From assembly GCF_003545715.1 (NCBI RefSeq), contig NZ_QVNU01000001.1, forward strand, positions 1,116,001 to 1,180,000: 64,000 nucleotides of DNA, read 5' to 3'. The notes under the pieces are model-generated. The model had not been told where the DNA came from, made no database searches, and saw only the letters and a list, made by a program, of their open reading frames with translations. Shown here piece by piece: positions 40,204 to 57,790 of this stretch (position 1 is the first letter of the stretch; every line of letters begins with the position of its first letter). A program made the position numbers and the translations under genes. This DNA is from Taibaiella koreensis. Lineage in GTDB: Bacteria; Bacteroidota; Bacteroidia; Chitinophagales; Chitinophagaceae.

Positions 40204-40290
40204 CATTGGCCATGTTATTAGAGACCGGTCAACTAATAAAATACTATGAATCGTAGTGTGCCTGAACACGACAGGCTTTAAAGTAAACTT

Positions 40291-40941
40291 ATGGACTACA
40301 TAAATATTTCGTTGGTAGACGACCATCCCATGGTTATCAGTGGGCTTACTACTTTGCTGCAGCCCTTTCCGCATATAGTGATCCATGGCACTTATAACAA
40401 TGCCGCGCAACTGCTTCAAGGCCTGCAGTATTATAGCCCCGATGTGCTGCTGCTTGACCTTATGCTACCGGATCAGTCCGGTAAAGAGCTGCTACCCCTT
40501 ATTCGTAAACAATATCCTGGCATGCGAATACTGGTGTTGACGAGCCTGGATACACCATCTATGGTTACCAATATGCTTCGTCACGGCTGTAACGGCTATC
40601 TGCTAAAAGGCGCCGGGCCTGGTACGCTGGTAGAAGCTATCGAGACGGTGTATAAAAAGGAAGAATATATTGACCCTGTCCTTAAAGAGCAATTGTTGCA
40701 GAATGTTCTTCACTTTAAGACCCGGATACAGGGCAACGCTTTGTCTGTGAAGCTGACGCAGCGGGAAAAGGAAGTATTGGGTATGATAGCCGAAGAGCAT
40801 ACTACCAGCGAAATAGCGGAGAAGCTATTCATCAGCTATCATACAGTGGAGAGCCACCGTAATAATCTGATGCGTAAGCTGAATGTGAAGAATACGGTTG
40901 GTCTGCTGAAAGTGGCGATACAGCTGGGCCTTATCCGGTAG
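40291..40941 (+). CDS. NarL/LuxR-family response regulator
   Basis: 216 residues. Receiver domain at 1-120 (LVDDHP, phospho-acceptor Asp56 in VLLLDLMLP, Lys in GYLLKGAGP) and LuxR helix-turn-helix at ~147-210 (LTQREKEVLGMIAEEHTTSE, SYHTVESHRNNLMRKL). Cognate of the preceding TPR kinase. Its targets are unknown; the biosynthetic cluster starts about 120 nt past its stop on the opposite strand. Confidence 0.92.
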   Translation: MDYINISLVDDHPMVISGLTTLLQPFPHIVIHGTYNNAAQLLQGLQYYSPDVLLLDLMLPDQSGKELLPLIRKQYPGMRILVLTSLDTPSMVTNMLRHGCNGYLLKGAGPGTLVEAIETVYKKEEYIDPVLKEQLLQNVLHFKTRIQGNALSVKLTQREKEVLGMIAEEHTTSEIAEKLFISYHTVESHRNNLMRKLNVKNTVGLLKVAIQLGLIR

Positions 40942-41058
40942 CAAAAATTGAGTGATGGCAGCATGGCCGTCTCCCATTTCTTCGCTTGATCCCGTGAAGA
41001 CAGTTGTTCTTTCTGACAGAGGGTTAGTATGGTTTGCCATTTATAGGTCATTCGCCCT

Positions 41059-41709
41059 TCAGAATACTTCCTTATGTAGCGAGATTGTTGAGGCTGCCAT
41101 CTGATCATTTGTTGCAAGGTGGCAAATGTAGTTTCCGGGTATCGGGATCTCGTTTAGGAACCAATGGGTATGCTCCAGCTGAGTCTGTTTATCTTTTATC
41201 GAAAAGCTTTGCAGGGGGATATTTAATCCTTTTCCGTTTGCCTTAAGCACACTTTCCTTGGCGGTCCAGTATCGATAGAAATGAGTTAGCTTATCGTCTG
41301 ATCGTTTTATGTCAAGCCGTTCCTCATCAGTCATGATACTGTAATAGGCATCTGTCTCTACCGGATGAATACACTCAATGTCTATTCCCAATCTACAGGT
41401 TGTGCTTAAGGCGCAAACGACACAATATTCTGAGTGGGCAATGTTGAAGTCGACAACACCACCGGGGATAAATGGTTTATTGTACGCCGTATACGCCAGA
41501 TCGGAGAGAGTATAGCTGCCGGATAGGCCAAGCGCCGCAAAACCGCGCTGGATCAATAATTTACCCAATAAGAAGGCCCAACGGTTTTTCGATCTTTTAT
41601 ATCGGGAAGCTACCTCGTGAAACGTAACAGGCAGCGTTAAGAGAAGGCGCTCAAAAGCAATATCATCTTCTGCTGCATCCGAGAAAAAAGTATACAATAC
41701 CAGGACCAT
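41059..41709 (-). CDS. Sfp-type 4'-phosphopantetheinyl transferase
   Basis: 216 residues with the Sfp-group signature: Mg-binding Asp110 and Glu112 in LGIDIECI and WTAKESVLKANGKGL at 148-162 with Glu152 and Lys156. It also has the FNIAHSEYCVVCAL motif at 88-101. It transfers phosphopantetheine from CoA to carrier-protein serines. Placed divergently from the SDR and PKS genes, it should activate the five ACP domains of the PKS. The spacer of 240 nt to the SDR gene carries a TATATTTC -7-like box at 41856-41863 for the plus strand. Confidence 0.92.
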   Translation of the reverse strand: MVLVLYTFFSDAAEDDIAFERLLLTLPVTFHEVASRYKRSKNRWAFLLGKLLIQRGFAALGLSGSYTLSDLAYTAYNKPFIPGGVVDFNIAHSEYCVVCALSTTCRLGIDIECIHPVETDAYYSIMTDEERLDIKRSDDKLTHFYRYWTAKESVLKANGKGLNIPLQSFSIKDKQTQLEHTHWFLNEIPIPGNYICHLATNDQMAASTISLHKEVF

Positions 41710-41949
41710 AATTGACTGACGGATTTCATGCCTGGCGGCCTTTATCCTGATTATGTAAATATTAATTTGCTCTTTTTATTTTACAATTGCAAGGTAGTTC
41801 ATTCTGCTAATCTTCCTCTTATAAAACCTCATTTAATTAATAGCCGTCTTGTGGCTATATTTCTACAGGGCTGTGTTTGCCGATTCTCTATGTTTGTCCG
41901 CGTTATACGGTAATCGTAATAACAACACCAAACCAAACACCCCGATTTT

Positions 41950-42702
41950 ATGAACTATTTAAAAGGCAAAGTGGCGCTCGTAACCGGCGCCACGTCCGGC
42001 ATTGGCAAATCCATTGCCCTGTTGTATGCATCGCACGGTGCAAAAGTTATGGTCTCCGGCCGTAATGAAAAAAACGGACAGGATGTGGTCCGGGAAATCC
42101 AAAGCAAAGGCGGCGAAGCGGCATTCTTTAAAGCCGATGTTTCTGATCCGGAACAATGCCGTTCCCTGATTGAAAACGTTGTTTCAACTTTCGGCCGCAT
42201 TGATGTCGCTTGTAACAATGCCGGCGTATCAGGTGGTCTCAGCCTGGTTGTCGACTATGAGGTCGAATCCTGGAAAGAAGTGCTGGACACCAATCTGAAC
42301 AGTGTCTTCTATTGTATGAAGTATGAGCTGGAAGCTATGGGTAAGCAAAATGCACCGGGTGTGATCATCAACATGTCATCCGTGCTGGGTCTGGCCGGGG
42401 AAATGGGCTTATCGGCTTATGTCGCTTCCAAGCACGCTATCATCGGGCTTACCAAAAGCGCCGCACTGGAGAATGCAACTAAGGGTATCCGGATCAATAC
42501 CGTTTGTCCCGCCTACATTGAAACGCCTATCCTCGACGTCCTCTCTGACGAACAGCGGAAAGCCGTGGAAGGCCTGCAGCCGGTAATGCGGGTTGGCAAA
42601 CCGGAAGAAGTTGCCGAACTGGTATTGTGGCTATCTTCCGATAAAGCTTCTTTTGTTACCGGCTCCCATTACTCCGTAGATGGAGGATACCTGGCCCGGT
42701 AA
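41950..42702 (+). CDS. Short-chain dehydrogenase/reductase (FabG-like)
   Basis: 250 residues. Cofactor motif TGATSGIGK at 13-21, NNAG at ~90-93, catalytic Ser/Tyr/Lys in MSSVLGLAGEMGLSAYVASKH (YVASK), and C-terminal VTGSHYSVDGGYLAR. Classical SDR, probably an oxidoreductase acting on a hydroxyl or keto group. Being first before the PKS on the same strand (191 nt), it may tailor the polyketide or supply a starter; cotranscription is likely but not certain. Confidence 0.85.
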   Translation: MNYLKGKVALVTGATSGIGKSIALLYASHGAKVMVSGRNEKNGQDVVREIQSKGGEAAFFKADVSDPEQCRSLIENVVSTFGRIDVACNNAGVSGGLSLVVDYEVESWKEVLDTNLNSVFYCMKYELEAMGKQNAPGVIINMSSVLGLAGEMGLSAYVASKHAIIGLTKSAALENATKGIRINTVCPAYIETPILDVLSDEQRKAVEGLQPVMRVGKPEEVAELVLWLSSDKASFVTGSHYSVDGGYLAR

Positions 42703-42893
42703 TCATCTTCACTTATTGGGCTGCGTCATGCAGCAGAAATACACTGCCGTGAAATCACACGGACGGTCGGTATTTGTTATGAGCCTTACTTGTTGTTGCA
42801 CGTGCGGAAAAACTGCATACGCCGTGCAATAGCAGGGACGGCTGATGCTGCATGCCAATGCCGTTTTTATTCATCTGCTCCAAACACAATACT

Positions 42894-45800
42894 ATGAACA
42901 CCCAAAAAGTGCCTTTAGTACAACAGCCCGTAGCAATTATCGGAATGGCTTGCCGCTTTCCGGGAGCGGAGCATTATGAGGAATTCTGGCAGAATTTAAT
43001 GGATGGAAGATCCGGCATTTCCGAGATACCACAGGAAAGGTGGCGCTGGAAGCAATACCAGGACGCCTTTCCGGGAAATGGTTCATCGGGGAAATGGGGC
43101 GGTTTTATCAAAGATGTGGATCGTTTCGATGCATCTTTCTTTCAGATCTCCGGTAAGGAAGCGGAGCTGATGGATCCACAACAGCGTATCATGCTGGAAT
43201 TGACCTGGTCTTGCCTGGAGGATGCGGGTCTGCCTCCTTCAAGGCTTTCCGGTACCCATACAGGTGTTTTTGTCGGTGTATTCAATTATGATTATAAGGA
43301 GCTGGCGGAGCGTGGCGGTTCAGTCGAAGCGCATTACGGCACAGGGACTTCCGCGGCTCTGGTAGCGAACCGCTTATCCTATTACTATAATCTGAAGGGA
43401 CCCAGCGTTCCCATCGATACGGCCTGTTCCAGCTCGTTGCAGGCCATACACATGGCAGCACAGTCTATACAGGTGGGTGAATGCGATATGGCTTTAGCAG
43501 GTGGCGTGAGCTTATTGCTTACGCCGGCCAGGCATATTGCATTTGCGAAGGCAGGTATGTTGTCGCCTACAGGAAGCTGTAAGAGTTTTGATGATAGCGC
43601 CGATGGCTATGTACGTGGCGAGGGGGCGGGCATCTTGCTGTTAAAATCGCTGGATAAGGCACAGGCCGACGGTGATATTATTTATGGGGTATTGCGTGGA
43701 AGTGCCGCAAATCATTGCGGAAAGACGTATACCATTACTTATCCGAGTCCGGCTGCGCAGGCCGAGGTCATAGCGATGGCTGTAAAGCGTGCGGGCATTC
43801 CGGTAGAGACAATCAACCATATAGAAGCGCATGGTACCGGAACACCTAAAGGGGACCCTATTGAATTTGAAGGCCTGGTTAAAGCTTTCGCAATGCAGGT
43901 GCAACCCGGTAGTACGAAACACAATTACTGCGGCGTGGGCTCTGTAAAGGCAAGCATCGGCCACCTGGAATCTACCGCCGGAGTAGCGGGTATGATAAAG
44001 GTATTGCTGGCTATGAAATACCGAAAGCTGCCGGGTGTATTACACTTCGGGAAGTTAAACAGTCGCATTTCACTAAATGATACCCCTTTCTATATCATTG
44101 ACCGGCATCACGACTGGGCGCCCGTTTTAGATAAGGATGATCATCCTTATCCGCGCAGGGCCGGCGTAAGCTCATTTGGCTTTGGCGGTACCAATGCGCA
44201 CGTTGTGCTGGAAGAAGCGCCTTATGCTAAGCCTGTGACACGGACGGCACGACCTGCTTATCTGATCTGTCTTTCGGCAAAAAATAGAGAGGCGTTGCAG
44301 CAGAAAATAGCGGCGCTGGCGGCATGGGTCGATGCTGGTGGAAGACATGCTCATCTTGCAGATATCAGCTATACGCTGCTTCTGGGAAGAGATCATTTTC
44401 AATACCGCAAAGCTTTTGTGGCAGCGAATATGGGAAGCTTATCAGCTTTACTGCGGCGTGCCCTGGAGTCGCAGCAGGAAACAGAAGCGATACTCCCGGT
44501 CATGCAAGCGGAGGTCTCAGACCCGATTTTATTGGATATAGACGGTAGCGATATACTGCCTATACCCACGGCCACCGATTATATCGATAGACTGGAGCGC
44601 CTGGCGGCTTCGTACACCAAGGGTTACAACGGCAACTGGTCATTACTGTTCGGCGATGACGAAGTAAAACGGATCGCTATGCCGGCTTACCCCTTTCAAC
44701 GGGCCAGGTATTGGTTGCAGGAAACCGGAGCGCCGGCTTATGTGAAATCTTTTTCATACCAGGAGCCTGCAGCACCAGCTGCGTTGCGGGAATCCCTTTT
44801 TACCGGCAATGAGTGTTTCCTGGAGGATCACGTTTTTAACGGCCGGAAGATACTGCCCGCAGTTGTCTATATGGAACTAGTACATAGTCGTGTGCAGCAA
44901 TTACTGGCTACGCAGATGTCCGGGAACGATGTGGTCTGCTTAAAGAACCTGGTTTGGATGTCGCCGTTTATCGTGGATCAGGAAGCAGCCACACTCCAGA
45001 TAGACATGGAGCAAAGGGAAAACGGCAGCCTGTACTATGAGGCTTTTTCGGAAGATCTGTTGCAGCAAAAAAAAGTACATAGCTGCGGAACGGCCTATCT
45101 GGCGCAGGTGCCTGAAATACCCGTAGCTGACATAGCTCAGCTCATGGTTAATGGTGCTCCGGGCCCATTGGAAGGCAAACATTTTTATAGCTTACTTGAG
45201 GACGCGGGATTTCACTATGGGCCATCTCATCAGATGGTCGAACGGCTCTTCGTTTATAAAGACAAGGTCTTCGCCAGGTTGAAAGCCGGTGCGCCCACGC
45301 ACCCGGAAACGCTTGCATATACTTTGCACCCGGGCTATATGGATGCGGCATTGCAGGCGACCATGGGTTGGCTGGCGATGGATGCAGCAAATGGTGCGCC
45401 TGTTATGGTCCCCTTGCCCTTTGCCATGCAGGAGGTGAAGGTATATGCTTCCAGCAGAGAAGTAGAATGGGCCATAGTACATAAGGTAATGGATAAGGCC
45501 GGTTTACTGGATATTGATCTCTGCGATGCTTCCGGAAAAGTGTGTGTGCAGATGAAGGGATATAGCGGAAGAATTATGGTCCGCGAGTCCATCTCAACGA
45601 TCGATATTGTGCCGGATGATGATGTCTGTAAATTGGAAAGTCTCTGGTCAGAACGGCAAACGACGAGCCATGCCGACGTACAGTCATTCGACAATCACAT
45701 TGTTGTGCTGTGCGACAGTAGGTCTTCAGCGACTGACGATACAGACGTCCGTTGGCAAAATATCACGCGTTTTACGCTGAAAAGTGAAGCGGTGGACATG

Positions 45801-48800
45801 GAGAACAGGTTCGCCGATTATTGCTGGAAACTAATGGAACTTGTTCAGGATCTGTTCGCGCGCCATCGGGGAAAAACGTTGATGCAGGTTGTCGTTGATC
45901 ACGAAGGCCCAGGACGGCTTTTAGCCGGATTGAGTGGCCTGCTGAAAACCGTATCTACCGAATACACTAAGTTTCAGACGCAGATCATTGAATATCCGAA
46001 AGCGGAAAGCAAACAGCTCTTATCGATGCTTTTGGCCAACAAAGCATCTGCGGCTGATCGCCATGTCAGGTACAGGAGCGGTAAGCGATGGGTGAAAAGC
46101 TGGCGATATGTACCGGAACAAACATCTGTTGAAAATCCGTGGCGTAACAAGGGTGTTTATCTCATTACCGGCGGCGCAGGCGGCTTGGGCTTGATTTTTG
46201 CCACAGAGATCGCCGGGAGGACTACTCGCGCAACCATCATTCTTTCCGGCCGTAGCCCGCTATCCCGGGAAAATGAAGCGCGATTGCAGGCCTTACGAAC
46301 CCAAGGCAACACGATACGCTACAGGCAGCTTGATGTTACGGATGCCCACGCCGTAAGGGAAACGATGGATTGGATCAGGGATACTTTTGGCGGACTGCAT
46401 GGCATTGTACACGCGGCGGGCATCATCAATGATAATTACATCATTCGCAAAACACGGGACGAGCTGGAAGGTGTATTGGCGCCAAAGGTTGCGGGGCTGA
46501 TCAATCTGGATGAGGCAAGCGCCGGAATGAAGCTTGATCTTTTTGTGCTGTTCTCTTCTACCAGCGGTGCACTCGGCAATATTGGCCAGTCCGATTACAG
46601 CGCCGCAAATAACTTTATGGACGAATACGCATGCTATCGCAATACACTTCGATCGCAGGGATTGCGAAGCGGAAGATGCATTGCTATCAGTTGGCCGTTC
46701 TGGAAGGATGGCGGCATGCGGCTTACGGAAACGGGTATTACCGCTTTATACCGGTATGCAGGAATGGTACCCATGGAGACGGAAAAAGGCATAAATGCAT
46801 TTTACACCGTGCTGCAATCGGAGCAGGATCATGTTATGGTGATGCAAGGCGACAGGGAATTACTGCTCAAAAGACTTCAGTGTGATCCGGAAGAAAATAC
46901 AAGACCGGCATCCGGTTTTCTTGAACAAATAAACGAACTGAAAATGAATCCCTACGAAAATGAACAAATCAAGGAGCTGATACAGCAGCTCATATACATG
47001 GCAGCGGGTATTCTGAAATCGTCTGCTGCTGACATCGATCCCAAAGCGCCGTTAGATGAATACGGCTTTGATTCGATCCTGTATACGGAGTTTGCGCTCA
47101 GGCTAAACGAAACATTCCAAACAGAAGTTGCACCCACATTGTTTTTTCAATATGATACGATTGCTGCGTTAGCGGCTTATCTGATCGATGCAGGTGCAGC
47201 CGGACCGCAGCCTGCTGAAGATACCGGCCGTCCCGGCAACCGGCATCCCGTGCGGGCAATCAAGGAGGATATGCTGCAGTGGCTGACCGGGGCGTTGTGC
47301 GGTTACGCGGCAGCAGTGTTAAAGGTCCCGGCAACCGATATTGACCCGGGTGCCGGCATGGACAAATATAGTTACGATTCCATCGCCTACACCGAGTTTG
47401 CGATCAGGCTAAACGACGCCTTCGGTCTTCAGCTCGCGCCTACTTTATTTTTTGAGCATGCCACATTAAGTGCATTGGCAGCACATTTACTGGACCGTTG
47501 GCCTTCTGTCTTTGAAGAGAAATTTTCTTCAAAGGCCCCTGATCAGGAATTACCCGGCGAATCCCTGCAAATGGAACAAAGACGTATTGCCAATGGGAAG
47601 GAAGACGCAGGTCCTCCAGACGCTGATCCATCGGATTCGCTTATTGCCATTATTGGTGTTAGCGGCAGTTTTGCGATGTCGGAAGATCTCGAAGCATTAT
47701 GGAAAAACCTGATTGAAGAAAGAGATTGTATCAGCGAAATTCCCGCCGACCGTTGGGACTGGCAAAGTCATTTTGGTAATGCTGTATCTGAACAAGGCAA
47801 GACTTCTGTGAAATGGGGTGGCTTTATGAAAGACCTGAATGCATTTGATGCAGCGTTTTTCAATATCTCGCCGGGTGAGGCCGCTTATATCGATCCGCAG
47901 CAGCGCCTGTTGCTGATGCATGTCTGGAAGACGCTGGAAGATGCGGGTTATGCACCGCAGGATTTCTATGGCAGCAATACAGCGTTGTTTACCGGGATTA
48001 CAAGTCATGAGTATAGTGCCCGGGTTTCCAGGATGAATGTCAAAACAGAGGGCTATCATCAGGCGAGTATTATTTCCTGCATCGGACCTAACCGCGTGAG
48101 CTATTTCCTGAACCTGCACGGCACCAGTGAGCCGGTAGATACAGCTTGTTCCAGTTCGCTTGTTGCCATTCACCGCGCAGTGCGTGAGATCAGGTCGGGC
48201 GATTCGGAAATGGCCATTGCAGGTGGCGTAACAGTGCTTTCGTCTTTGCCCTCCTACATCAGCTTCGATAAGGCCGGTATGCTTTCGAGGACTGGTCGCA
48301 GCAAAACATTCTCAGACCAGGCCGATGGTTACGCGCGTGGTGAAGGCATTGGAGTAGTTCTGTTAAAACGTTTGGATGCTGCAGAGCGCGATGGCGACCA
48401 TATTTACGGCGTCATCAAAGGATCGGCAGTAAATCATGGCGGGCGGGCCAATTCGCTCCAGGCGCCGAATATGCGGGCACAAGCCGCTTTGCTGAAAGCG
48501 GCCTATTCGAAGGCAGGCATTGATCCCCGCACAGTAGGCTACATCGAAGCACATGGCACCGGCACCAGGATCGGCGATCCTATCGAGGTCGATGCCTTGA
48601 AAGCGGCTTTTAAAGAATTGTATGGCGAGACTGGTAATACGGCCGTTGATACGACGCATTGCGGATTAGGCTCGCTGAAAACCAATATCGGTCATTCCGA
48701 GTACGCTGCCGGAATTGCAGGTGTTATTAAGGTATTGCTGCAGATGAAACACCGGACTTTGGTCAAGACCTTACATTGCGATACCGTTAACCCATACATC

Positions 48801-51800
48801 GACCTGAAAGGCAGTCCCTTCTTTATTGTCAGGGAAACGCAGCCCTGGAAGGCTTTGCGGGATGATCTTGGAAAGGAATTGCCGAGAAGAGCAGGCGTAA
48901 GCTCTTTTGGCTTTGGCGGTGTTAATGCCCACGTTATTCTTGAAGAGTACATCGATAAGCGATTGCCCCAAAGTGTTGCTGATGTCTCTCGTAGTCATCC
49001 TGCCATCTTTGTTCTGTCGGCAAAAAAGGCAGAGCAGCTTAAGGTGCAGGTGCAGCAGTTATTAGAGGCAATTCAATCCGGAAGGTATACCGGAGATATG
49101 TTTAGGGATGTAGCCTATACGCTCCAGGTTGGCCGCAATGCTATGGAAGAGCGCCTTTGCATATTGGCAGATACTTTTAGCGAGCTGGCCGGTAAATTGG
49201 AGCGTTTCCTGAAACAGGGAACGCAGGGAGATGGCTTATGGATAGGCCAGGTGAAAAGGGTAAAACCGGGTAGCGGCACGATAGACAACGTACCGGTAGA
49301 CAAAAAGGTGGTAGCAGCTATTAGCACGCACGATTATCGTGGCCTGGCTCAATTGTGGATAGATGGCTATGCGGTACCCTGGGCGCTTTTATATACAGGG
49401 ACTAAGCCCCGTCGTTTGAGCCTGCCGACTTACCCCTTCTCTAAAGATGTTTTCACGCTGAATGCGGAATATACCCTGGTGGCTAAGACTGTAATGCCAA
49501 TGGCTCAACCGGTGCCGGAAGCAGGAAGTACGGTAACAGAAAAGCCGCGAAAGCAGATACAGGAGGTACTGGTGGCCAATATTGCCCGTTTGCTGAATAT
49601 GGATGCCCGACATATAATGCTTGATGAAAACCTCGATGAATACGGCTTTGATTCGGTTTTGTATACGCAGTTTTCCATTGAATTGAACGAACAATTCGGT
49701 TGGGATTTGACGCCGGCCATATTTTTCCGGTATCCCGATATCGAACAGCTATCCGCTTACCTGTCCGGCGAATACCCGGCAACGTTTAATACGTCGGGTC
49801 ACACCATAGAAGCACCATCTTTGCCGGGGACAGGAGTTGATAGCGTTAGCCATGGTGCTACTGCTCCGGTGGAAATGCTCCAAATGCTTACCGGCAAGGT
49901 CGCGCAGATATTGAAATTCAGTGAGGACCTGATCGACCCGCATGCAGACCTGAATGAATACGGTCTGGATTCGATCATCGTAACGCAATTGACCAGCGAG
50001 CTGAATGAAGCATTTAATATCGAGCTGACGCCCAATATCATTTTCGGATGTCAGAACCTGAATGCGCTAAGTGTCTACCTGCAGGATAACTATACCGGTT
50101 TTTTTTCAAAGGCGCCGTCTGATCCACGGGCTGATGTTTCCCAAGGAAACGAGCCATTGAAAGGGGCAGATAGCCAACCGGCGCCATTCGCTTCGAGCGA
50201 AAAGAAAGATCCGTCTGCAGTGGCCATAGTCGGGTTGAGTATCCAATTTCCCATGGCAAAAGATGCCGGCCAGTTCTGGGATAACCTGGTTGAGGAAAAG
50301 CATTGTATCGCTGAGATACCCGCCGATCGGTGGGATTGGCGCGATTACCCTGAACTAAAGATAAAATGGGGCGGCTTTATGGATGATATGGCAACGTTCG
50401 ATCCGCTTTTCTTCAAAATATCTCCGGCGGAAGCATTGCAGATGGATCCCCAGCAACGTTTGCTGATGCAGCATGCCTGGAAGGCAATCGAAGATGCCGG
50501 GTACGATCCGCATTCACTCTCTGGTTCCAACACAGGTGTTTTTGCGGGTGTTCTTTGCTACGAATACAGCAAGCTGCTGGCAAAGGCAGATGTTCCGATT
50601 GCAAGCCATTCATTGATGGGTATGGTCGGTTCTATGGGACCCAACCGCATTAGCTATTTCCTGGACATTCATGGGCCCAGCGAAGCTATTGAAACCGCCT
50701 GTTCCAGTTCATTGGTTGCTATTCACCGGGCCGTGGAGGCCATCAGGTCCGGTGCCTGTGATACAGCGCTGGCCGGAGGCGTAAATACGCTGTTGTCGCC
50801 AGATGTTTTTGTAAGCCTCGACGAGGCGGGTACCTTAAGCCCTGATGGTGTCTGCAGGCCTTTTTCCGATCAGGCCAAGGGGTATGTGCGGGGCGAGGGC
50901 ACCGGCGTGGTTTTCTTAAAGCGGCTCGAAGACGCAGAACGCGACGGCGATCATATTTACGCCGTAGTCAGGAGTACTACCGAAAATCATGGCGGACGCG
51001 CCAATACGTTGACATCACCTAATCCCAAGGCACAGGCTGCTTTACTGCATACCGCCTACCGCAAGGCGGGCATCGATCCCCGTACGGTGGGCTATATCGA
51101 AACGCACGGTACCGGTACCGAATTGGGAGATCCTATTGAGGTTGGCGCGCTGAGGAAAGCTTTTGGTCAATTATACGAAGATAACAGCACGACTTTCAAT
51201 GGTGAAAAACACTGTGGCATTGGTTCCGTGAAGGCCAATATCGGTCACCTGGAAGTGGCCGCAGGTATTGCCGGGGTAGCTAAAGTGCTGTTGCAGATGA
51301 AACATAAAAAGCTGGTCAAAAGTCTCCATTGCGAACGGTTGAATCCGTACATCGATTTTAATGACGGACCTTTTTATGTCGTCAATGCAACGGAAGAATG
51401 GAAAGCGTTGTGTAGCCCATCCGGCGAAGCATTGCCAAGACGCGCCGGTGTAAGCTCGTTCGGATTTGGTGGCGTAAGCGCGCATATCGTATTGGAGGAG
51501 TACATCCCGAAACAAAAGCCTGACGCAGATCCGGGGCAGTATGTAGTGGTCTTGTCGGCAAAAAACAGGGGCAGGCTGTCCGAGTATGCGGAGCATCTGC
51601 GCAATGCCATTGAAAAGAAGCAAGTAAAAGACAGTGACATGGCAAGCCTTGCCTATACCTTGCAGACCGGTAGGGAGGCTATGGAAGAGCGGCTTGCTAT
51701 GGTGGTCGATTCCCTGTCGCAATTGCGGACCGCGTTACATGAATTTATTTCCGGTGATGCTTTTAGTGGTACAGGCTATTTGGGCAGTACCCGGCAAAAG

Positions 51801-53255
51801 GCTGGGACAAATGCATCCGGAGCTTCAGCTCTTTTATCAAAGATGGCTGCCGCGTGGGTACAAGGCGAAGACGTAGATTGGCGCAGTTTATATGGCGACG
51901 AAAAGCCGATGCGGATGAGCTTGCCCACCTATCCGTTTGAGCGTAAACGATTCTGGCCTCTCGATCCTGATCACAAAGAGCCGGAAGAATCGGCACAGAA
52001 CGACCAAGCGCTTAGCCCGGCTACAGATCATAACCTGGATGCACGCGCCATTGCCTATTTTAAACACACAATTGCCGGGCTTGTGAAGATTCCGGTATCG
52101 GAAATCCGGGAGACGGAAATGCTGATCCATTACGGCGTAGATTCCATCGCTATCAGCAGACTGCTGGTGAAGATGAAAAGCGTAATGCCTAAGGTGACGA
52201 ATAGCGTGGTGTTTGAGCATCCGACAATTGCCGAGCTGGTTGCATACCTAGTCGGTCACGAGCAAGAAGGTCTGCGAAAGCTGCTGGGCGATACTGTTGC
52301 GCCAAAAGAAGAAAGCTATTGCTCAGGAAATAGCATGCTGTTGCTCAACGAAGGCGGTAAGGGCAAACCGGTATTTTGGTTCCACCCGGGTGGCGACGGT
52401 ATTGATGGGTACCAGTATTTTGCCGAAGCCAGTGAGCGGCCATTCTACGGAATTGTCGCCGATCAATGGATCCGGGAACGAAAGCATATCCGGGGTATTC
52501 CGGAAATGGCAGCTGAATATCTCCGTATGATCCGGTCCATACAGCCGGAAGGTCCTTATGACCTGGGTGGATTTTCTCTAGGTGGTGCGTTGGCTTATGA
52601 AGCAACCCGCCAGCTGCAATTGGAGGGGCAACGGGTGTCTACCATTACCATGATTGATTCAGTGTACGTTCCGGAATTGATGGGTAAATTCCTGCTCGAC
52701 TACAAAACGATGCTGCTGCAAACGGTAAACCTGTTATTGATGTCATCGTCTTCGAAAGAAGGGATAGAAAGAACCGCCAGGCTTATTCATCGCAGGGAAC
52801 TGGACACTGGCCTCTCCAACGATGCTTTCCTGGATCAGGTGATGCAGTGCGCGCAGCAACGTGGCTTTGCCTATCCTGTAGCCTACCTGAATGCTATAGT
52901 AGCAAAGGGGCTTAAGGTAAGGGACGCTTCGGAATTTGCCGATTACAAGGTATTGCCGCTGATCGATCCTGCCGCTGTTCGTTGTGATTATTTTGTCAAC
53001 GGCACGCAATCTTTTTATGGTGCGCTGGCTCCTTACTTTATACTAAATGAAAAGGATAATGTACCTCTGGAACAGGTAGATTATTGGGCGGCCTGGGAAA
53101 AGCAGCTTTTGCACTTCCGGAAGACGGAGCTTCCGGTTACAGATCATGTAACGCTTATGAACGATCGCAACCTGCTCAGGCCGGTTATCGACCATTGTAA
53201 AGCGCTGTATGCTTCCCGGCAGCACAATGTCCAATTTGAATACGCAACCTCATAA
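42894..53255 (+). CDS. Trans-AT type I polyketide synthase: KS-DH-KR-ACP-ACP-KS-ACP-ACP-KS-ACP-TE
   Basis: 3453 residues from the ATG at 42894 (MNTQKVPLVQQPVAIIGMAC); 42852 adds 14 unconserved residues. Domains: KS1 ~10-445 (Cys178, His313, His357); DH ~640-895 (His646 in HVFNGRKILP, Asp817 in DAALQ); KR ~985-1330 (GGAGGLG at 1093, Tyr1235); ACP1 Ser1394, ACP2 Ser1496; KS2 ~1580-2020 (Cys1752, His1887, His1934); ACP3 Ser2254, ACP4 Ser2360; KS3 ~2440-2870 (Cys2603, His2738, His2785); ACP5 Ser3084; thioesterase ~3155-3450 (Ser3228 in GGFSLGG, His3418). All catalytic residues look intact. There is no acyltransferase domain: each KS is followed only by a ~150-residue linker ending in a YPF motif. 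Malonyl loading must come from the AT-ER protein. Product unknown. Confidence 0.95.
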   Translation: MNTQKVPLVQQPVAIIGMACRFPGAEHYEEFWQNLMDGRSGISEIPQERWRWKQYQDAFPGNGSSGKWGGFIKDVDRFDASFFQISGKEAELMDPQQRIMLELTWSCLEDAGLPPSRLSGTHTGVFVGVFNYDYKELAERGGSVEAHYGTGTSAALVANRLSYYYNLKGPSVPIDTACSSSLQAIHMAAQSIQVGECDMALAGGVSLLLTPARHIAFAKAGMLSPTGSCKSFDDSADGYVRGEGAGILLLKSLDKAQADGDIIYGVLRGSAANHCGKTYTITYPSPAAQAEVIAMAVKRAGIPVETINHIEAHGTGTPKGDPIEFEGLVKAFAMQVQPGSTKHNYCGVGSVKASIGHLESTAGVAGMIKVLLAMKYRKLPGVLHFGKLNSRISLNDTPFYIIDRHHDWAPVLDKDDHPYPRRAGVSSFGFGGTNAHVVLEEAPYAKPVTRTARPAYLICLSAKNREALQQKIAALAAWVDAGGRHAHLADISYTLLLGRDHFQYRKAFVAANMGSLSALLRRALESQQETEAILPVMQAEVSDPILLDIDGSDILPIPTATDYIDRLERLAASYTKGYNGNWSLLFGDDEVKRIAMPAYPFQRARYWLQETGAPAYVKSFSYQEPAAPAALRESLFTGNECFLEDHVFNGRKILPAVVYMELVHSRVQQLLATQMSGNDVVCLKNLVWMSPFIVDQEAATLQIDMEQRENGSLYYEAFSEDLLQQKKVHSCGTAYLAQVPEIPVADIAQLMVNGAPGPLEGKHFYSLLEDAGFHYGPSHQMVERLFVYKDKVFARLKAGAPTHPETLAYTLHPGYMDAALQATMGWLAMDAANGAPVMVPLPFAMQEVKVYASSREVEWAIVHKVMDKAGLLDIDLCDASGKVCVQMKGYSGRIMVRESISTIDIVPDDDVCKLESLWSERQTTSHADVQSFDNHIVVLCDSRSSATDDTDVRWQNITRFTLKSEAVDMENRFADYCWKLMELVQDLFARHRGKTLMQVVVDHEGPGRLLAGLSGLLKTVSTEYTKFQTQIIEYPKAESKQLLSMLLANKASAADRHVRYRSGKRWVKSWRYVPEQTSVENPWRNKGVYLITGGAGGLGLIFATEIAGRTTRATIILSGRSPLSRENEARLQALRTQGNTIRYRQLDVTDAHAVRETMDWIRDTFGGLHGIVHAAGIINDNYIIRKTRDELEGVLAPKVAGLINLDEASAGMKLDLFVLFSSTSGALGNIGQSDYSAANNFMDEYACYRNTLRSQGLRSGRCIAISWPFWKDGGMRLTETGITALYRYAGMVPMETEKGINAFYTVLQSEQDHVMVMQGDRELLLKRLQCDPEENTRPASGFLEQINELKMNPYENEQIKELIQQLIYMAAGILKSSAADIDPKAPLDEYGFDSILYTEFALRLNETFQTEVAPTLFFQYDTIAALAAYLIDAGAAGPQPAEDTGRPGNRHPVRAIKEDMLQWLTGALCGYAAAVLKVPATDIDPGAGMDKYSYDSIAYTEFAIRLNDAFGLQLAPTLFFEHATLSALAAHLLDRWPSVFEEKFSSKAPDQELPGESLQMEQRRIANGKEDAGPPDADPSDSLIAIIGVSGSFAMSEDLEALWKNLIEERDCISEIPADRWDWQSHFGNAVSEQGKTSVKWGGFMKDLNAFDAAFFNISPGEAAYIDPQQRLLLMHVWKTLEDAGYAPQDFYGSNTALFTGITSHEYSARVSRMNVKTEGYHQASIISCIGPNRVSYFLNLHGTSEPVDTACSSSLVAIHRAVREIRSGDSEMAIAGGVTVLSSLPSYISFDKAGMLSRTGRSKTFSDQADGYARGEGIGVVLLKRLDAAERDGDHIYGVIKGSAVNHGGRANSLQAPNMRAQAALLKAAYSKAGIDPRTVGYIEAHGTGTRIGDPIEVDALKAAFKELYGETGNTAVDTTHCGLGSLKTNIGHSEYAAGIAGVIKVLLQMKHRTLVKTLHCDTVNPYIDLKGSPFFIVRETQPWKALRDDLGKELPRRAGVSSFGFGGVNAHVILEEYIDKRLPQSVADVSRSHPAIFVLSAKKAEQLKVQVQQLLEAIQSGRYTGDMFRDVAYTLQVGRNAMEERLCILADTFSELAGKLERFLKQGTQGDGLWIGQVKRVKPGSGTIDNVPVDKKVVAAISTHDYRGLAQLWIDGYAVPWALLYTGTKPRRLSLPTYPFSKDVFTLNAEYTLVAKTVMPMAQPVPEAGSTVTEKPRKQIQEVLVANIARLLNMDARHIMLDENLDEYGFDSVLYTQFSIELNEQFGWDLTPAIFFRYPDIEQLSAYLSGEYPATFNTSGHTIEAPSLPGTGVDSVSHGATAPVEMLQMLTGKVAQILKFSEDLIDPHADLNEYGLDSIIVTQLTSELNEAFNIELTPNIIFGCQNLNALSVYLQDNYTGFFSKAPSDPRADVSQGNEPLKGADSQPAPFASSEKKDPSAVAIVGLSIQFPMAKDAGQFWDNLVEEKHCIAEIPADRWDWRDYPELKIKWGGFMDDMATFDPLFFKISPAEALQMDPQQRLLMQHAWKAIEDAGYDPHSLSGSNTGVFAGVLCYEYSKLLAKADVPIASHSLMGMVGSMGPNRISYFLDIHGPSEAIETACSSSLVAIHRAVEAIRSGACDTALAGGVNTLLSPDVFVSLDEAGTLSPDGVCRPFSDQAKGYVRGEGTGVVFLKRLEDAERDGDHIYAVVRSTTENHGGRANTLTSPNPKAQAALLHTAYRKAGIDPRTVGYIETHGTGTELGDPIEVGALRKAFGQLYEDNSTTFNGEKHCGIGSVKANIGHLEVAAGIAGVAKVLLQMKHKKLVKSLHCERLNPYIDFNDGPFYVVNATEEWKALCSPSGEALPRRAGVSSFGFGGVSAHIVLEEYIPKQKPDADPGQYVVVLSAKNRGRLSEYAEHLRNAIEKKQVKDSDMASLAYTLQTGREAMEERLAMVVDSLSQLRTALHEFISGDAFSGTGYLGSTRQKAGTNASGASALLSKMAAAWVQGEDVDWRSLYGDEKPMRMSLPTYPFERKRFWPLDPDHKEPEESAQNDQALSPATDHNLDARAIAYFKHTIAGLVKIPVSEIRETEMLIHYGVDSIAISRLLVKMKSVMPKVTNSVVFEHPTIAELVAYLVGHEQEGLRKLLGDTVAPKEESYCSGNSMLLLNEGGKGKPVFWFHPGGDGIDGYQYFAEASERPFYGIVADQWIRERKHIRGIPEMAAEYLRMIRSIQPEGPYDLGGFSLGGALAYEATRQLQLEGQRVSTITMIDSVYVPELMGKFLLDYKTMLLQTVNLLLMSSSSKEGIERTARLIHRRELDTGLSNDAFLDQVMQCAQQRGFAYPVAYLNAIVAKGLKVRDASEFADYKVLPLIDPAAVRCDYFVNGTQSFYGALAPYFILNEKDNVPLEQVDYWAAWEKQLLHFRKTELPVTDHVTLMNDRNLLRPVIDHCKALYASRQHNVQFEYATS

Positions 53256-53274
53256 AATCTCAAAAGAATCTTTA

Positions 53275-53871
53275 ATGAAAACATCTATAGCAAAATTGCC
53301 CGCAACTTATGCTGAGTTACAGCATTTCAGAGCAAATGATATATATCTTCCCGATATGAACTGGGAAGAGCTTGTGGCAGACTTCTTTCCTGAAACGGTT
53401 TCCCAGGTGGCACAAGGGCTTTCCAATACTACTTCTGCATTCTATGGACTGATGCTGCAGGAAATCGGAAACAGGTTTGGATCAGAGGCCATGGAGCGCA
53501 TTTCAAAGGCTACGGTATACGCTTTGGGAAGAAGGACCACCAGGAGGCTGCTCCAGCGTAAACCCGGATTGGAGCGCAATGCTATCGGGATAGCCAAAGT
53601 AGCCATGTCTGCGATATTCAACGCCAGTCCTGAGTACAGCTTTGAAGTGATCCGGTACGATGAAGATCGTGTGGAAATGTTGATGAGGGGGATCGATCGC
53701 TACCATAAAATTGCCCGCGAACTCGATATTCATACCTGGTTGTCCTCACCCATCGACGCGTTTGCACAGGGCATCAACGATGAGTTGGGTCTATCCTATA
53801 AAATAGCCATGGAAGTATATGGCATAGATGAAGAAAGTCATTGTTTTTATAAACTCAGTTTCGGTATATGA
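53275..53871 (+). CDS. Unassigned protein in the PKS operon
   Basis: 198 residues from the ATG at 53275, 20 nt after the PKS stop; the longer frame from 53209 would run inside the PKS gene. Soluble, alpha/beta, with an N-terminal recruiting-like stretch (LPDMNWEELVADFFPETV) and a Cys-containing C-terminal strand (SHCFYKLSF). The final motif faintly recalls V4R/ATC-hydrolase-like domains, but this is weak. Its stop overlaps the AT-ER start as ATGA, so translation is coupled and a role in the pathway is likely. Confidence 0.8.
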   Translation: MKTSIAKLPATYAELQHFRANDIYLPDMNWEELVADFFPETVSQVAQGLSNTTSAFYGLMLQEIGNRFGSEAMERISKATVYALGRRTTRRLLQRKPGLERNAIGIAKVAMSAIFNASPEYSFEVIRYDEDRVEMLMRGIDRYHKIARELDIHTWLSSPIDAFAQGINDELGLSYKIAMEVYGIDEESHCFYKLSFGI

Positions 53872-56120
53872 AGGTCTTCTTATTTCCCGGACAGGGGTCG
53901 CAGATACGCGGGATGGGTGAGCAGCTCTTCCCCAAATACCCCGGGCTGGTCGCAGCTGCAAACCGCATATTAGGCTACGATGTAGTGAGCCTTTGCCTGC
54001 GCGATCCGGACCGGTGTTTAAATAAAACACAGTTTACGCAGCCGGCTTTATATGTGGTGAGCGCGCTGTCCTATCTGGATAGCATCGGCACCGAAGGCAA
54101 ACCCGACTACTTGCTGGGGCACAGCTTTGGCGAGTATGTAGCCTTATTTGCCGCAGGCGCATTTTCCTTCGAGACGGGACTGATGCTGGTAAAGAAAAGG
54201 GCAGAGCTGATGAGTAACAGCAGGGGAGGCAGTATGGCTGCGCTGTTAGGCATGAACATAGATCAGGTGAAGGCGGTGCTGGATAAGCATGGGTATGATG
54301 GCATTGACATCGCCAATCATAATTCCTATGAGCAGATCGTGATCACCGGCCCCACTGAAGATATTATTTCGGCGCAGCAGGCATTTGAAACGGAGGATAT
54401 CAGGCTCTATTTTCCGCTTAATGTAAGCGGCGCCTTTCATTCCAGGTATATGAAAGACGCGGCCGAAGCATTCGGAAGATTTGCAGCAACCTGTACGTTT
54501 GAGCCCCTGCAGATACCCGTGATCGCGAACGTTACGGCGCGACCTTACCAGGACAACCGGATAGTTGCGCTTTTAAAGGAACAGATCGTGGGGCAGGTAA
54601 GATGGTATGAAAGCATCAGCTACCTGCTGGGAAAAGGCGACATGCAGTTTTTCGAGATAGGCCCCGGCGATGTGCTTAAGAAAATGCTCGTGCACATTCA
54701 AAAGCACCCGATGCCTGTCCCTGCAGATAAGCCAGTGCAACATGGGTCGGCAATTGCTGCAACGGCAAATGGTCTGCAAATGGTCACCCCTGAATCTTTA
54801 GGCGCAGCGACTTTTAAGAGTGACTATGGTGTCAGATATGCCTATGTGACCGGGGCAATGGTACACGGGATCGCTTCCCGGGAGCTGGTGGTGAAGATGG
54901 GGAAGGCAGGTATGCTCAGCTATTTCGGTACCGGAGGACTGAAACTTCATGATATAGAATCAGCAATTATTGAGATCAAAGCAAAGCTTGGTCAGGGAGA
55001 GCCATTCGGGATGAATTTGCTCAATGGCTCGCGGCAGGCAGAGACCGCAGCGCTGTTTATGAAACACGGTATACGGAATATTGAGGCCTCCGCCTTCATG
55101 AATATTACACCCGAGCTGGTGCAGCTACGCGTTAAAGGGATTCAGAGGAAACAAGATGGCGTAGTAGAAACGAAGACGCGGATCATGGCGAAAATATCCC
55201 GTCCGGAAGTGGCCACTGTTTTTTTGAGTCCTCCGCCTGCCACCATATTAAAACAGCTACTGGCTGTCGGTGTCCTGACGGCAGAAGAAGTCTCATGGGC
55301 AGCCTTGATCCCTATGGCCGACGATATCTGTGTAGAAGCAGATTCCGGAGGACATACCGACGGTGGCGTAGCCTTTACTTTATTGCCGGGCATTATGCGG
55401 CTGCGCGATGACATGATGACACAGCATGGCTATACGAGAATGGTGAGGATTGGCGCCGCAGGCGGTATCGGCACGCCGGAAGCCGCTGCCGCTGCATTTG
55501 TTATGGGGGCGGATTTTATATTGACGGGTTCCATTAACCAATGCACGGTGGAATCGGGGATGAGCGCTGTGGTAAAAGATATGCTGCAGGAAGCCGAGGT
55601 GCAGGATACGCAATATGCACCCGCCGGAGATATGTTCGAGATCGGCGCGAAAGTGCAGGTATTGCGTAAGGGGACTTTTTTCCCGGGAAGAGTAAATAAG
55701 CTGTATGAGCTATATCGTAATCATAATTCGCTGGAAGAGATAGACGCTGATACCCGTTCGCAGATTCAGCAACGCTATTTTAAACGGTCATTCGAGGAAG
55801 TTTATGAAGATGTGAAAGCGTATTATTCACCGGATGAAATTGCCGTCGCGGAGCGCAACCCGAAACAAAAAATGGCTTATATCTTCCGCTGGTATTTCGG
55901 TTACGCCAATGCGCTTGCGCTGAATGGCAACGAAGCCGGCCGGCCCGATTTTCAGATTCATTGTGGGCCTGCCTTGGGAGCATTTAACCGTTGGGTGAAG
56001 CATACGCCCCTGGAGAACTGGCGAAACAGGCATGTGGATGAAATGGCCGCAAAGATAATGACAGAAACCGCGAACCTCCTTAATGAGCGGATCCGCTATT
56101 GGCAAACCAAACTTCAATAA
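53868..56120 (+). CDS. Fused trans-acting malonyl acyltransferase and PfaD-type enoyl reductase
   Basis: 750 residues. AT domain ~1-285: GQGSQ at 8-12, nucleophile Ser86 in GHSFGE, and His191 in SGAFHSRYM, the AFHS form typical of malonyl specificity. ER domain ~300-750: PfaD-like FMN-type TIM barrel (AYVTGAMVHGIASRELVVKM, ADDICVEADSGGHTDGG, IGAAGGIGTPEAAAAAFVMGADFILTGSINQ), ending in the family's C-terminal tail. It is the only AT in the cluster, so it should charge all ACPs. With the DH and KR of module 1, the ER could give a fully saturated unit. Four-nt overlap with the preceding gene. Confidence 0.93.
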   Translation: MKVFLFPGQGSQIRGMGEQLFPKYPGLVAAANRILGYDVVSLCLRDPDRCLNKTQFTQPALYVVSALSYLDSIGTEGKPDYLLGHSFGEYVALFAAGAFSFETGLMLVKKRAELMSNSRGGSMAALLGMNIDQVKAVLDKHGYDGIDIANHNSYEQIVITGPTEDIISAQQAFETEDIRLYFPLNVSGAFHSRYMKDAAEAFGRFAATCTFEPLQIPVIANVTARPYQDNRIVALLKEQIVGQVRWYESISYLLGKGDMQFFEIGPGDVLKKMLVHIQKHPMPVPADKPVQHGSAIAATANGLQMVTPESLGAATFKSDYGVRYAYVTGAMVHGIASRELVVKMGKAGMLSYFGTGGLKLHDIESAIIEIKAKLGQGEPFGMNLLNGSRQAETAALFMKHGIRNIEASAFMNITPELVQLRVKGIQRKQDGVVETKTRIMAKISRPEVATVFLSPPPATILKQLLAVGVLTAEEVSWAALIPMADDICVEADSGGHTDGGVAFTLLPGIMRLRDDMMTQHGYTRMVRIGAAGGIGTPEAAAAAFVMGADFILTGSINQCTVESGMSAVVKDMLQEAEVQDTQYAPAGDMFEIGAKVQVLRKGTFFPGRVNKLYELYRNHNSLEEIDADTRSQIQQRYFKRSFEEVYEDVKAYYSPDEIAVAERNPKQKMAYIFRWYFGYANALALNGNEAGRPDFQIHCGPALGAFNRWVKHTPLENWRNRHVDEMAAKIMTETANLLNERIRYWQTKLQ

Positions 56121-56123
56121 AGT

Positions 56124-57644
56124 ATGACCAGGTATCAAAATGAAATGCTTGCAGAACCGGTCTCTGATCTTGATAGCCTGCTGGCCGGTATAACAGGTAT
56201 ACTCAGGTGCTGGATGAACGATCCGGTCAATAGTGCAAAGGCTCCGGCAGAAAAAAGGATGCCCCCGGCGCTGTTGCACAGCATTATGGCGCTACGTCCG
56301 CTTGCCGTATCCATGCCAGAACAGGCTGGTGGCCGTGGAGGAGCCATAAAGGAGTGCTTGCAGCTGCTCTCTGCCACTTCCTATGAGTCATTGGAGATGT
56401 CGATGATCTTCGGGATTAACATGTTCCTGTTCCTGCAGCCGGTGATCAAGTATGCCGGCACAGCAATAAAATCCGATATCTTTCATCGTTTCCTGGATGA
56501 GGGGCAAATGGGTGGGTTTATGCTCACCGAGCCTGATTATGGCAGCGATGTGCTTAATCTTGCCACAGCGCATGTCGATACCGGTACGCATTACCATATC
56601 TCAGGTACAAAGCATTGGCAAGGTCTTACAGGGCATGCCACCTATTGGTTGATAGCTTCCCGGAAAAAGAACCTTTCCGGTGAGCTGTCACGCGATATCG
56701 ATTTTTTTATTGCCGATGGAAATCAGGAGGAGCAGCGGACAGAAGTGTTGAAATATTACGACAGTCTTGGTCTGCACATGCTGCCTTATGGTTTGAGCAA
56801 GATAGACGTGTCTGTACCCAGGGAGCAAAGATTACATGGCGGCTCGACGGGCATCACGATGATGCTGGATATCTTGCACAACAGCCGGCTGCAATTTCCG
56901 GGAATGGCGATGGGCTTTATACAACGCATGCTGGATGAAGCTGTTGCTTATTGCACAAAGCGGCACATCGGTGGCCTTAGCTTGCTGACTTACGATCATG
57001 TGCAATACCAGATCAGCCGGATCCAGGCTGCGTATACCATTTGTTCCGCCATGTGTGTAAAATCCTGTGCGTTCAATAGTGTAGCCTGCGATGCATCTGG
57101 TTTGGGACTGGATGCCAACAGCATGAAAACATTAGTAACGGACCTGATGCATGAATCGGCACAGATACTGTTGCAACTGTCCGGAGCGCAAGGTTACCGG
57201 TTAAGCGCATTCGCAGGTCGTGCGCTTATCGACAGCCGCCCGTTCCGGATATTCGAAGGTCCCAACGACGTATTGTACAGTCAGATTGCGGAAACCATAT
57301 TACGCGGCATGAAGATAACCGGGCAGAGGAATCTTTTGGCCTACCTGCAGCAGCATCAGTCGACGATAACATCGTCCGGGCTGTTTCAAAACGACCTGGA
57401 CTTTGTCATGGACTTTTCGCTCCCTCAGCGAAAGAAAGTGGACCTTGGCGGGATCATAGCGCGCATAATAGCTGCCGGATATGTCATGGAGCTTGATCAT
57501 AAAGGATACCGGAAGGATTTGATTGATATGGCGATCTTAGTGCTGCGCCAGGATGTAGCCGGCTTGTTTGCTGCTTTTGGATCAAAACACAAGCCCTTGC
57601 CGGTTGTGGACTATAAAGAAGGTAGCGATTGGTCCGATTTTTAA
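56124..57644 (+). CDS. Acyl-CoA dehydrogenase-family flavoenzyme
   Basis: 506 residues, longer than typical ~380-residue members because of a C-terminal extension (~400-506). FAD-binding motifs GGFMLTEPDYGSDV and GTKHWQGLTGHA at ~130-180, and the catalytic-base region FRIFEGPNDVLYSQIAE near 375-391. Starts 4 nt after the AT-ER stop, so it belongs to the operon. Likely role: alpha,beta-desaturation of a carrier- or CoA-bound acyl group, starter unit or product. A tailoring oxidation cannot be excluded. Confidence 0.88.
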   Translation: MTRYQNEMLAEPVSDLDSLLAGITGILRCWMNDPVNSAKAPAEKRMPPALLHSIMALRPLAVSMPEQAGGRGGAIKECLQLLSATSYESLEMSMIFGINMFLFLQPVIKYAGTAIKSDIFHRFLDEGQMGGFMLTEPDYGSDVLNLATAHVDTGTHYHISGTKHWQGLTGHATYWLIASRKKNLSGELSRDIDFFIADGNQEEQRTEVLKYYDSLGLHMLPYGLSKIDVSVPREQRLHGGSTGITMMLDILHNSRLQFPGMAMGFIQRMLDEAVAYCTKRHIGGLSLLTYDHVQYQISRIQAAYTICSAMCVKSCAFNSVACDASGLGLDANSMKTLVTDLMHESAQILLQLSGAQGYRLSAFAGRALIDSRPFRIFEGPNDVLYSQIAETILRGMKITGQRNLLAYLQQHQSTITSSGLFQNDLDFVMDFSLPQRKKVDLGGIIARIIAAGYVMELDHKGYRKDLIDMAILVLRQDVAGLFAAFGSKHKPLPVVDYKEGSDWSDF

Positions 57645-57659
57645 TGCTTGTTAATGGAA

Positions 57660-57790
57660 AGAGGCTGTCTCCAAAGGTCTCAAGCCTGTCACATTGAGCG
57701 GAGTCGAAATGTAACAGGCTTGAGACATAATTTTGTGTTATTTCGACTACGCTTAATATGATAAAAATGACCCCTTTTTAGAGAGCCTCT
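57660..57790. repeat. 131-bp MITE-like element with inner hairpin
   Basis: Ends AGAGGCTGTCTCCAAA (57660-57675) and TTTTTAGAGAGCCTCT (57775-57790) are imperfect inverted repeats. Inside is a 19-bp stem with one mismatch (57677-57695, 57708-57726) containing the ATTGAGCGGAGTCGAAAT loop region. It lies between the polyketide operon and the oxidoreductase, and supplies that gene's 3' end. Confidence 0.6.

What the first reader, a model, noticed from the sequence alone, without database searches (positions are those of the whole stretch)
42894..53255. Compact trans-AT polyketide synthase: three KS, five ACP, TE, no loading module
Seen: one protein with KS-DH-KR-ACP-ACP-KS-ACP-ACP-KS-ACP-TE, all catalytic residues intact and no AT. 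Known: such lines use free-standing acyltransferases. Inference: with a KR only in module 1, modules 2 and 3 would leave beta-keto groups, so the released chain could close as a pyrone or similar enolised ring. There is no recognisable loading module, so the starter is probably an external acyl group. I recall no described pathway with this exact architecture.
Basis: partly seen in the sequence, partly recalled or inferred. Interest (0 to 1): 0.85.

Follow-up and report, generated by a model that had tools for sequence, protein, structure and literature searches.

The report
Compact trans-AT polyketide assembly line
A bacterium of the phylum Bacteroidota carries a small, self-contained polyketide assembly line with its own helper enzymes that may reuse one set of reducing domains for two extension steps, so its product cannot simply be read off the order of its parts.

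Summary
In detail: one ORF (42894-53255 +) encodes KS-DH-KR-ACP-ACP-KS-ACP-ACP-KS-ACP-TE with no AT. It sits in a cassette: SDR, PPTase, PKS, a 198-aa protein of unknown family, an AT fused to a PfaD-type ER, and an acyl-CoA-dehydrogenase-like protein. All six recur in Taibaiella soli (PKS 71%, SDR 92% identical) and, diverged, in Dyadobacter tibetensis. KS1 groups with an N-terminal KS of the thiomarinol plasmid (100/100), which also starts without a loading module. The pyrone idea is weakened: KS3, although it follows a bare KS-ACP-ACP stretch, groups with KSs fed by DH-KR-ACP modules (95/84), and ACP3/ACP4 share residues with DH-KR-type ACPs that ACP5 lacks. Best model: the single KR-DH serves two extensions, leaving a beta-keto group only on the last ACP. 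This is inference. In Dyadobacter no ACP was found between KS2 and KS3, but its DH has lost both catalytic motifs, which limits the model. No product is known to me. New variant of a known kind.

The parts
41059..41709 (-). 4'-phosphopantetheinyl transferase (PF01648)
   Evidence: motifs GIDIE and WTAKE; 41% identical gene after the cassette in Taibaiella soli, 36% in Dyadobacter
41950..42702 (+). short-chain dehydrogenase/reductase, possible trans KR or tailoring enzyme
   Evidence: 92% identical in Taibaiella, 62% in Dyadobacter, upstream of the PKS in both
42894..53255 (+). trans-AT PKS, 3453 aa (ORF open from ATG 42852)
42924..44246 (+). KS1
   Evidence: sister to an N-terminal thiomarinol-plasmid KS
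44784..45578 (+). DH
46152..46718 (+). KR (reads as B type: no W motif, D after HAAG; typing rule recalled)
46977..47189 (+). ACP1
47286..47495 (+). ACP2
47640..48974 (+). KS2, groups with DH-fed KSs
49557..49766 (+). ACP3, carries two of three DH-KR-type ACP residues
49878..50087 (+). ACP4, carries two of three DH-KR-type ACP residues
50217..51527 (+). KS3, groups with DH-fed KSs although it follows bare KS-ACP-ACP
52050..52253 (+). ACP5, lacks those residues
52365..53213 (+). thioesterase
53275..53871 (+). 198-aa protein of unknown family (weak ATC_hydrolase match, below cut-off)
53868..56120 (+). AT fused to PfaD-type ER, the trans AT and trans ER
   Evidence: GHSFG and GAFH motifs; 79% and 62% identical in the two relatives
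56124..57644 (+). acyl-CoA/ACP dehydrogenase-like protein
   Evidence: FEGPND and TEPDYGSD

Best explanation
A complete small trans-AT PKS pathway. Shown: domain content, catalytic motifs, a neighbouring AT/ER, a PPTase, and conservation of the cassette in three genera. Inferred: the AT/ER loads malonyl on the five ACPs; KS1 is primed from outside with a small acyl group, probably acetyl, like the first KS of the thiomarinol and mupirocin lines. KS1 extends it on ACP1/ACP2, where KR and DH (and perhaps the ER) act. KS2 extends it again with ACP3/ACP4; these ACPs are still recognised by the same KR-DH, or the SDR does the ketoreduction, so KS3 receives an alpha,beta-unsaturated chain. KS3 adds the last unit on ACP5, which the KR does not recognise, and the TE releases a beta-keto, diene-type (or partly saturated) short acid. 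The dehydrogenase-like protein and the 198-aa protein act on the chain or its starter. So one reducing set serves two extensions and the line is not collinear.
For: In a 55-row tree KS2 and KS3 of the three lines form a set (UFBoot 97 / SH-aLRT 85) that joins five reference KSs, all fed by KS-DH-KR-ACP (95/84). All eight nearest labelled references of window KS3 are DH-fed, seven of eight for Dyadobacter KS3. Holding KS3 with three KSs fed by bare tandem ACPs is rejected (p-AU 3.1e-8, groups named after seeing the tree). The trans-AT correlation rule: same-line KSs that take different substrates usually do not group (PMC7930024, passages). T at Ser+4 with N at Ser+11, two of three residues conserved in ACPs of DH-KR(B)-KS+ER units (PMC8549798 section 10), occur in ACP1-4 but not ACP5; among references in 7 of 23 DH-KR, 1 of 25 KR, 0 of 24 bare and 2 of 16 N-terminal ACPs. 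Dyadobacter has three ACPs after the KR and none found between KS2 and KS3, so KS2 seems to work with ACPs elsewhere. KS1 with the thiomarinol KS 100/100.
Against: The Dyadobacter DH has lost HxxxGxxxxP and has E for the second Asp, so its own DH should not dehydrate anything, yet its KSs sit in the same clade. Trans-AT KR-ACP pairs are reported as specific to their module, against sharing unless ACP3/4 are cognate. N at Ser+8, the third residue, is missing in ACP1-4; N at Ser+11 alone is common in bare-module ACPs (18 of 24), so the signal rests on T at Ser+4 (0 of 24 bare); 16 of 23 DH-KR references lack the pair; Dyadobacter ACP1 lacks T. KS2/KS3 and ACP1-4 may look alike only through duplication within the gene. 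KS3 outside KS2 plus the DH-fed references is not rejected (p-AU 0.53). The next wider set holds a bare-labelled bacillaene KS, and the 20-row set around it KR-fed and another bare KS. A nearest DH-fed reference meant a DH-fed KS in only 18 of 26 cases (4 KR, 4 bare). Plain beta-keto-fed references were few. The SDR, not the PKS, is the most conserved of the genes compared (92%).
Confidence: 0.42

Rival explanations
1. Strictly collinear reading: module 1 reduces and dehydrates, modules 2 and 3 leave two beta-keto groups, and the TE product closes to a 4-hydroxy-2-pyrone.
For: No KR or DH lies in modules 2 and 3; TE and KS motifs are intact; KR-ACP pairs in trans-AT lines are reported as module-specific.
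Against: KS3 and ACP3/4 look like parts for reduced, dehydrated chains; KS2 and KS3 group together; no module-2 ACP found in Dyadobacter.
Confidence: 0.22
2. Module 1 (KS1-DH-KR-ACP-ACP) iterates to make a polyene or fatty chain, and KS2/KS3 only finish it.
For: Tandem ACPs and a trans ER; programmed iteration in trans-AT lines is rare but known and was said to make conjugated alkenes (PMC10098928, passages; gladiolin module 5 in PMC10921412, passages).
Against: KS1 groups with a starter-position KS; KS2 and KS3 keep their active-site motifs. In gladiolin a trans ER suppresses iteration.
Confidence: 0.15
3. The conserved SDR, with a dehydratase from outside the cassette, processes the module-2 product in trans, so the module-1 KR-DH is not shared.
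For: SDR kept in all three cassettes and 92% identical to that of Taibaiella; it would also suit Dyadobacter, whose DH motifs are lost.
Against: No dehydratase among the cassette genes scanned with Pfam (not searched genome-wide); the SDR's best NCBIfam hits are general SDRs, the top one below its cut-off, and it could be a tailoring enzyme.
Confidence: 0.15

Closest known systems
Bacillaene-type trans-AT PKS of Bacillus velezensis pDMB05-1 (name recalled, not in the record)
   Same: Its NRPS-PKS subunit has the reference KSs nearest to window KS2 and KS3 (58-60% identity) and the ACP nearest to ACP1 and ACP2; free AT genes
   Different: Each of those KSs is followed by its own DH-KR; the cluster has NRPS parts and an HMG-CoA-synthase-family gene
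Thiomarinol/mupirocin lines
   Same: KS1 is sister to the first KS of the 6697-aa thiomarinol-plasmid protein (TmpD by recall; 100/100); MmpD starts with a KS without a loading GNAT (PMC10098928)
   Different: Much larger; the thiomarinol plasmid has an HMG-CoA-synthase-family gene, this genome has no PF08540 match; MmpB makes only the last extension of a fatty side chain (PMC10098928)
Dyadobacter tibetensis second PKS (L137/L138)
   Same: Short Bacteroidota trans-AT line with AT/ER (47%) and a homolog (39%) of the 198-aa protein
   Different: Collinear: MT-ACP-KS-DH-KR-ACP-KS-DH-KR-ACP-KS-ACP, no fused TE, no match to the dehydrogenase in the held stretch

Membership tests
trans-AT modular PKS | KS modules without integrated AT | tested here: met
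   No AT domain in 3467 aa
trans-AT modular PKS | Discrete AT encoded in the cluster with active-site motifs | tested here: met
   53868-56120, PF00698 and TIGR00128, GHSFG and GAFH; two AT-domain loci in the genome, this one and a 298-aa frame
trans-AT modular PKS | KS sequences of trans-AT type | tested here: met
   RhiE-like linker x3; the PDB list is led by PksJ-type and 'AT-less' PKS KSs, with cis-AT KSs also in it. No cis-AT KS was put in the trees.
pyrone-releasing line with two unreduced modules | Last KS of a type fed by bare (unreduced) modules | tested here: not met
   KS3 groups with DH-fed KSs; grouping with three bare-fed KSs rejected. Plain beta-keto-fed references were few, so this is not decisive.
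pyrone-releasing line with two unreduced modules | Product is a pyrone | not testable with these tools
   no metabolite data
HCS beta-branching module (tandem ACPs) | HMG-CoA-synthase-like enzyme in the genome | tested here: not met
   PF08540: 0 matches at E<=0.001 in the own genome, control rings in 4 of 14
MmpB/TmpB-type module | KS of the same clade | tested here: inconclusive
   window KS1 lies apart from thiomarA_19125_KS1 (KS-DH-KR-4xACP-KS) in the 107-KS tree, but that this protein is TmpB is recalled, and it is not an exact match to MmpB
shared KR-DH (non-collinear) line | Module-2 ACPs carry the KR-recognised residues and the last ACP does not | tested here: inconclusive
   two of three residues present in ACP1-4, none in ACP5; their role in this KR is not shown
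shared KR-DH (non-collinear) line | Active DH kept in all relatives | tested here: not met
   Dyadobacter DH motifs lost

The most novel reading that the evidence does not exclude
A conserved, single-protein trans-AT line in which one KR-DH pair acts on a pool of four KR-recognised ACPs spread over two modules and ignores a fifth, so that ACP identity rather than domain order sets where reduction stops. Dyadobacter would be the extreme form, where all those ACPs lie beside the KR and two KSs stand side by side.
Probability: 0.3. Interest if true: 0.6.

Novelty: new variant of a known kind. Interest (0 to 1): 0.42.

Why it matters
If right, it is a small natural test bed (one 10.4-kb PKS gene and five small neighbours) for how trans-AT lines programme non-collinear reduction through carrier-protein recognition. 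Two natural relatives, one with the same order and one with moved ACPs and degraded DH motifs, give ready comparisons. It also weakens a product guess that would have sent a metabolite search after a pyrone.

Tried and rejected
Beta-branching as the reason for tandem ACPs: no PF08540 match in the genome. The 198-aa protein as a marker of PKS clusters: in the held flanks of four relatives (G036, G618, G672, G653) my PKS-domain HMMs match only one FabF-sized KS in G036, though both Dyadobacter PKS loci have a homolog. The dehydrogenase as a marker: 78 of 80 kept loci (of 123 relatives found) show no KS in the held flanks; 39 of the 80 loci are shorter than 21 kb; my notes say 77, the calls give 78. 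No neighbour family is in more than 16 of the 80 loci (Pfam of three such families). Function of the 198-aa protein by sequence: one below-cut-off ATC_hydrolase match (E 0.053), no PDB match under E 0.2, no PHROG match; the paper search on it found nothing. A genome-contig scan with the 198-aa protein gave no relative. No Rfam match at 40000-58500; promoter-like and terminator-like sites are at or below shuffle level. Prevalence: KS2 at E<=1e-120 in 1 of 395 phylum genomes, the own one; 198-aa protein in 3 of 59 relatives (own, Taibaiella, G036), its profile in 2 of 394 family genomes and 4 of 395 phylum genomes; these are samples, and Dyadobacter (G797) was not among their matches. Rows left out: the 107-KS tree left out KS fragments under 390 residues and duplicates; the 57-row tree left out most KR-fed and N-terminal references; the 55-row tree also dropped two very long rows; 18 ACPs without a found DS site were left out. 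Names bacillaene, macrolactin, factumycin, TmpD, TmpB, and the KR-typing, AT-motif and HCS rules are recalled; PMC10098928 names Pseudoalteromonas SANK73390 for thiomarinol.

Full report
Observation. The ORF at 42852/42894-53255 + is open over its whole length. Pfam finds three KS, DH, KR, five carrier domains and one thioesterase, three RhiE-like linkers and no AT. HMMs built from the protein itself and its ortholog give the order KS-DH-KR-ACP-ACP-KS-ACP-ACP-KS-ACP-TE. Catalytic motifs of KS, DH, KR, ACP and TE are present.

Cassette. Downstream on the same strand lie a 198-aa protein (19 bases after the PKS stop), an AT/ER fusion (overlapping it by 4 bases) and an acyl-CoA-dehydrogenase-like protein (3 bases on); upstream lie an SDR and, on the other strand, a PPTase. 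The AT has GHSFG and GAFH motifs, which I read as malonyl type (recalled rule). The genome has one other AT-domain locus, a 298-aa frame, and no PF08540 HMG-CoA synthase match.

Relatives. Dyadobacter tibetensis Y620-1 has SDR 62%, PPTase 36%, a PKS of 3497 residues, 198-aa protein 53%, AT/ER 62% and dehydrogenase 56%. Its PKS reads KS-(DH)-KR-ACP-ACP-ACP-KS-KS-ACP-TE: no carrier was found between KS2 and KS3, even with filters off. Its DH has lost both catalytic motifs. The two species belong to Chitinophagales and Cytophagales. The same Dyadobacter genome has a second, collinear trans-AT PKS with its own 198-aa homolog. The cassette looks rare: the 198-aa profile is in 2 of 394 genomes of the family sample.

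KS types. Labels for reference KSs were taken from the domains upstream in the same protein, on plasmid-borne lines; they miss domains my five HMMs do not cover, and such stretches were flagged. Among 60 labelled references, a DH-fed nearest relative from another line meant DH-fed in 18 of 26 cases, KR-fed in 4, bare in 4. For window KS3 all eight nearest references are DH-fed, for Dyadobacter KS3 seven of eight. In a 55-row IQ-TREE, KS2 and KS3 of the three lines form one set (97/85) that joins five DH-fed references (95/84), and KS1 of the three lines joins the first KS of a thiomarinol-plasmid protein (100/100). In the 57-row tree the next wider set adds one DH-fed and one bare-labelled KS, and the 20-row set around it KR-fed and a further bare KS. 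Holding KS3 with three KSs fed by bare tandem-ACP modules is rejected (p-AU 3.1e-8), but KS3 as an outgroup to KS2 plus the DH-fed references is not (p-AU 0.53). A paper on 1782 trans-AT clusters states that KSs of one line that take different substrates usually do not group (PMC7930024, passages). So KS3 most likely takes the same kind of substrate as KS2, an alpha,beta-unsaturated chain.

ACP types. In PksJ, ACPs of the DH-KR(B)-KS+ER type carry conserved T, N and N at Ser+4, +8 and +11, and KR-ACP pairing is specific (PMC8549798, section 10 read). Window ACP1-4 carry T and N at +4 and +11 but not N at +8; ACP5 carries none. Taibaiella is the same; in Dyadobacter two of the three carriers after the KR carry both and the last ACP none. 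Among references the T/N pair is in 7 of 23 DH-KR, 1 of 25 KR, 0 of 24 bare and 2 of 16 N-terminal ACPs; N at +11 alone is in 18 of 24 bare ones, so T carries the signal. This fits ACP3/ACP4 being clients of the module-1 KR, but duplication within the gene would give the same picture.

Starter. KS1 has no loading domain before it. The first KS of mupirocin MmpD is described as lacking a loading GNAT and possibly primed through a free ACP (PMC10098928, passages). By kinship of KS1 with the thiomarinol counterpart, an externally supplied small acyl, probably acetyl, is the best guess.

Dehydrogenase. A PKS-linked acyl-CoA dehydrogenase, HliR, makes a diene starter in haliangicin (PMC4768178, passages); this is a precedent for a role, not a relative tested here.

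Literature seen. Passages of PMC10098928, PMC7930024, PMC9248904, PMC10921412 and PMC4768178, and passages plus one whole section of PMC8549798; of all other papers only search listings. PMC9248904 names Taibaiella as rich in gene clusters and trans-AT PKS as rare in Chitinophaga.

Conclusion. The pathway is real and conserved, the architecture is confirmed, and the pyrone prediction is weakened. The shared KR-DH model explains KS3, ACP3/4 and the missing ACPs in Dyadobacter, but not the degraded DH there; SDR-assisted or collinear readings remain open. My ten paper searches listed nothing that describes this line, which is weak evidence of novelty.

Noticed in passing
window 32275-35443 +: An MbnP-family secreted protein followed by two di-haem MauG-type cytochrome c peroxidases, an MbnP/MbnH-like set (the MbnH comparison is recalled).
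   Followed up: no
L137 5158-17670 and L138 684-4413: Second Dyadobacter trans-AT PKS: MT-ACP-KS-DH-KR-ACP-KS-DH-KR-ACP-KS-ACP with AT/ER, a 242-aa frame that reads like a stand-alone thioesterase (not searched) and a homolog of the 198-aa protein on the other strand.
   Followed up: partly
L014 12264-18034: In G618 the 198-aa homolog lies after a TetR / outer-membrane efflux / HlyD / MFS set; G672 has ORFs of like size in the same order, not searched.
   Followed up: no
window 38269-40941 +: TPR histidine kinase and LuxR-type response regulator just before the PPTase, a possible regulator of the cassette.
   Followed up: no
window 7685-11464 + and 17442-20204 -: A C25-family peptidase with a secretion tail, and a LigD protein with ligase, phosphoesterase and primase-polymerase domains.
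   Followed up: no
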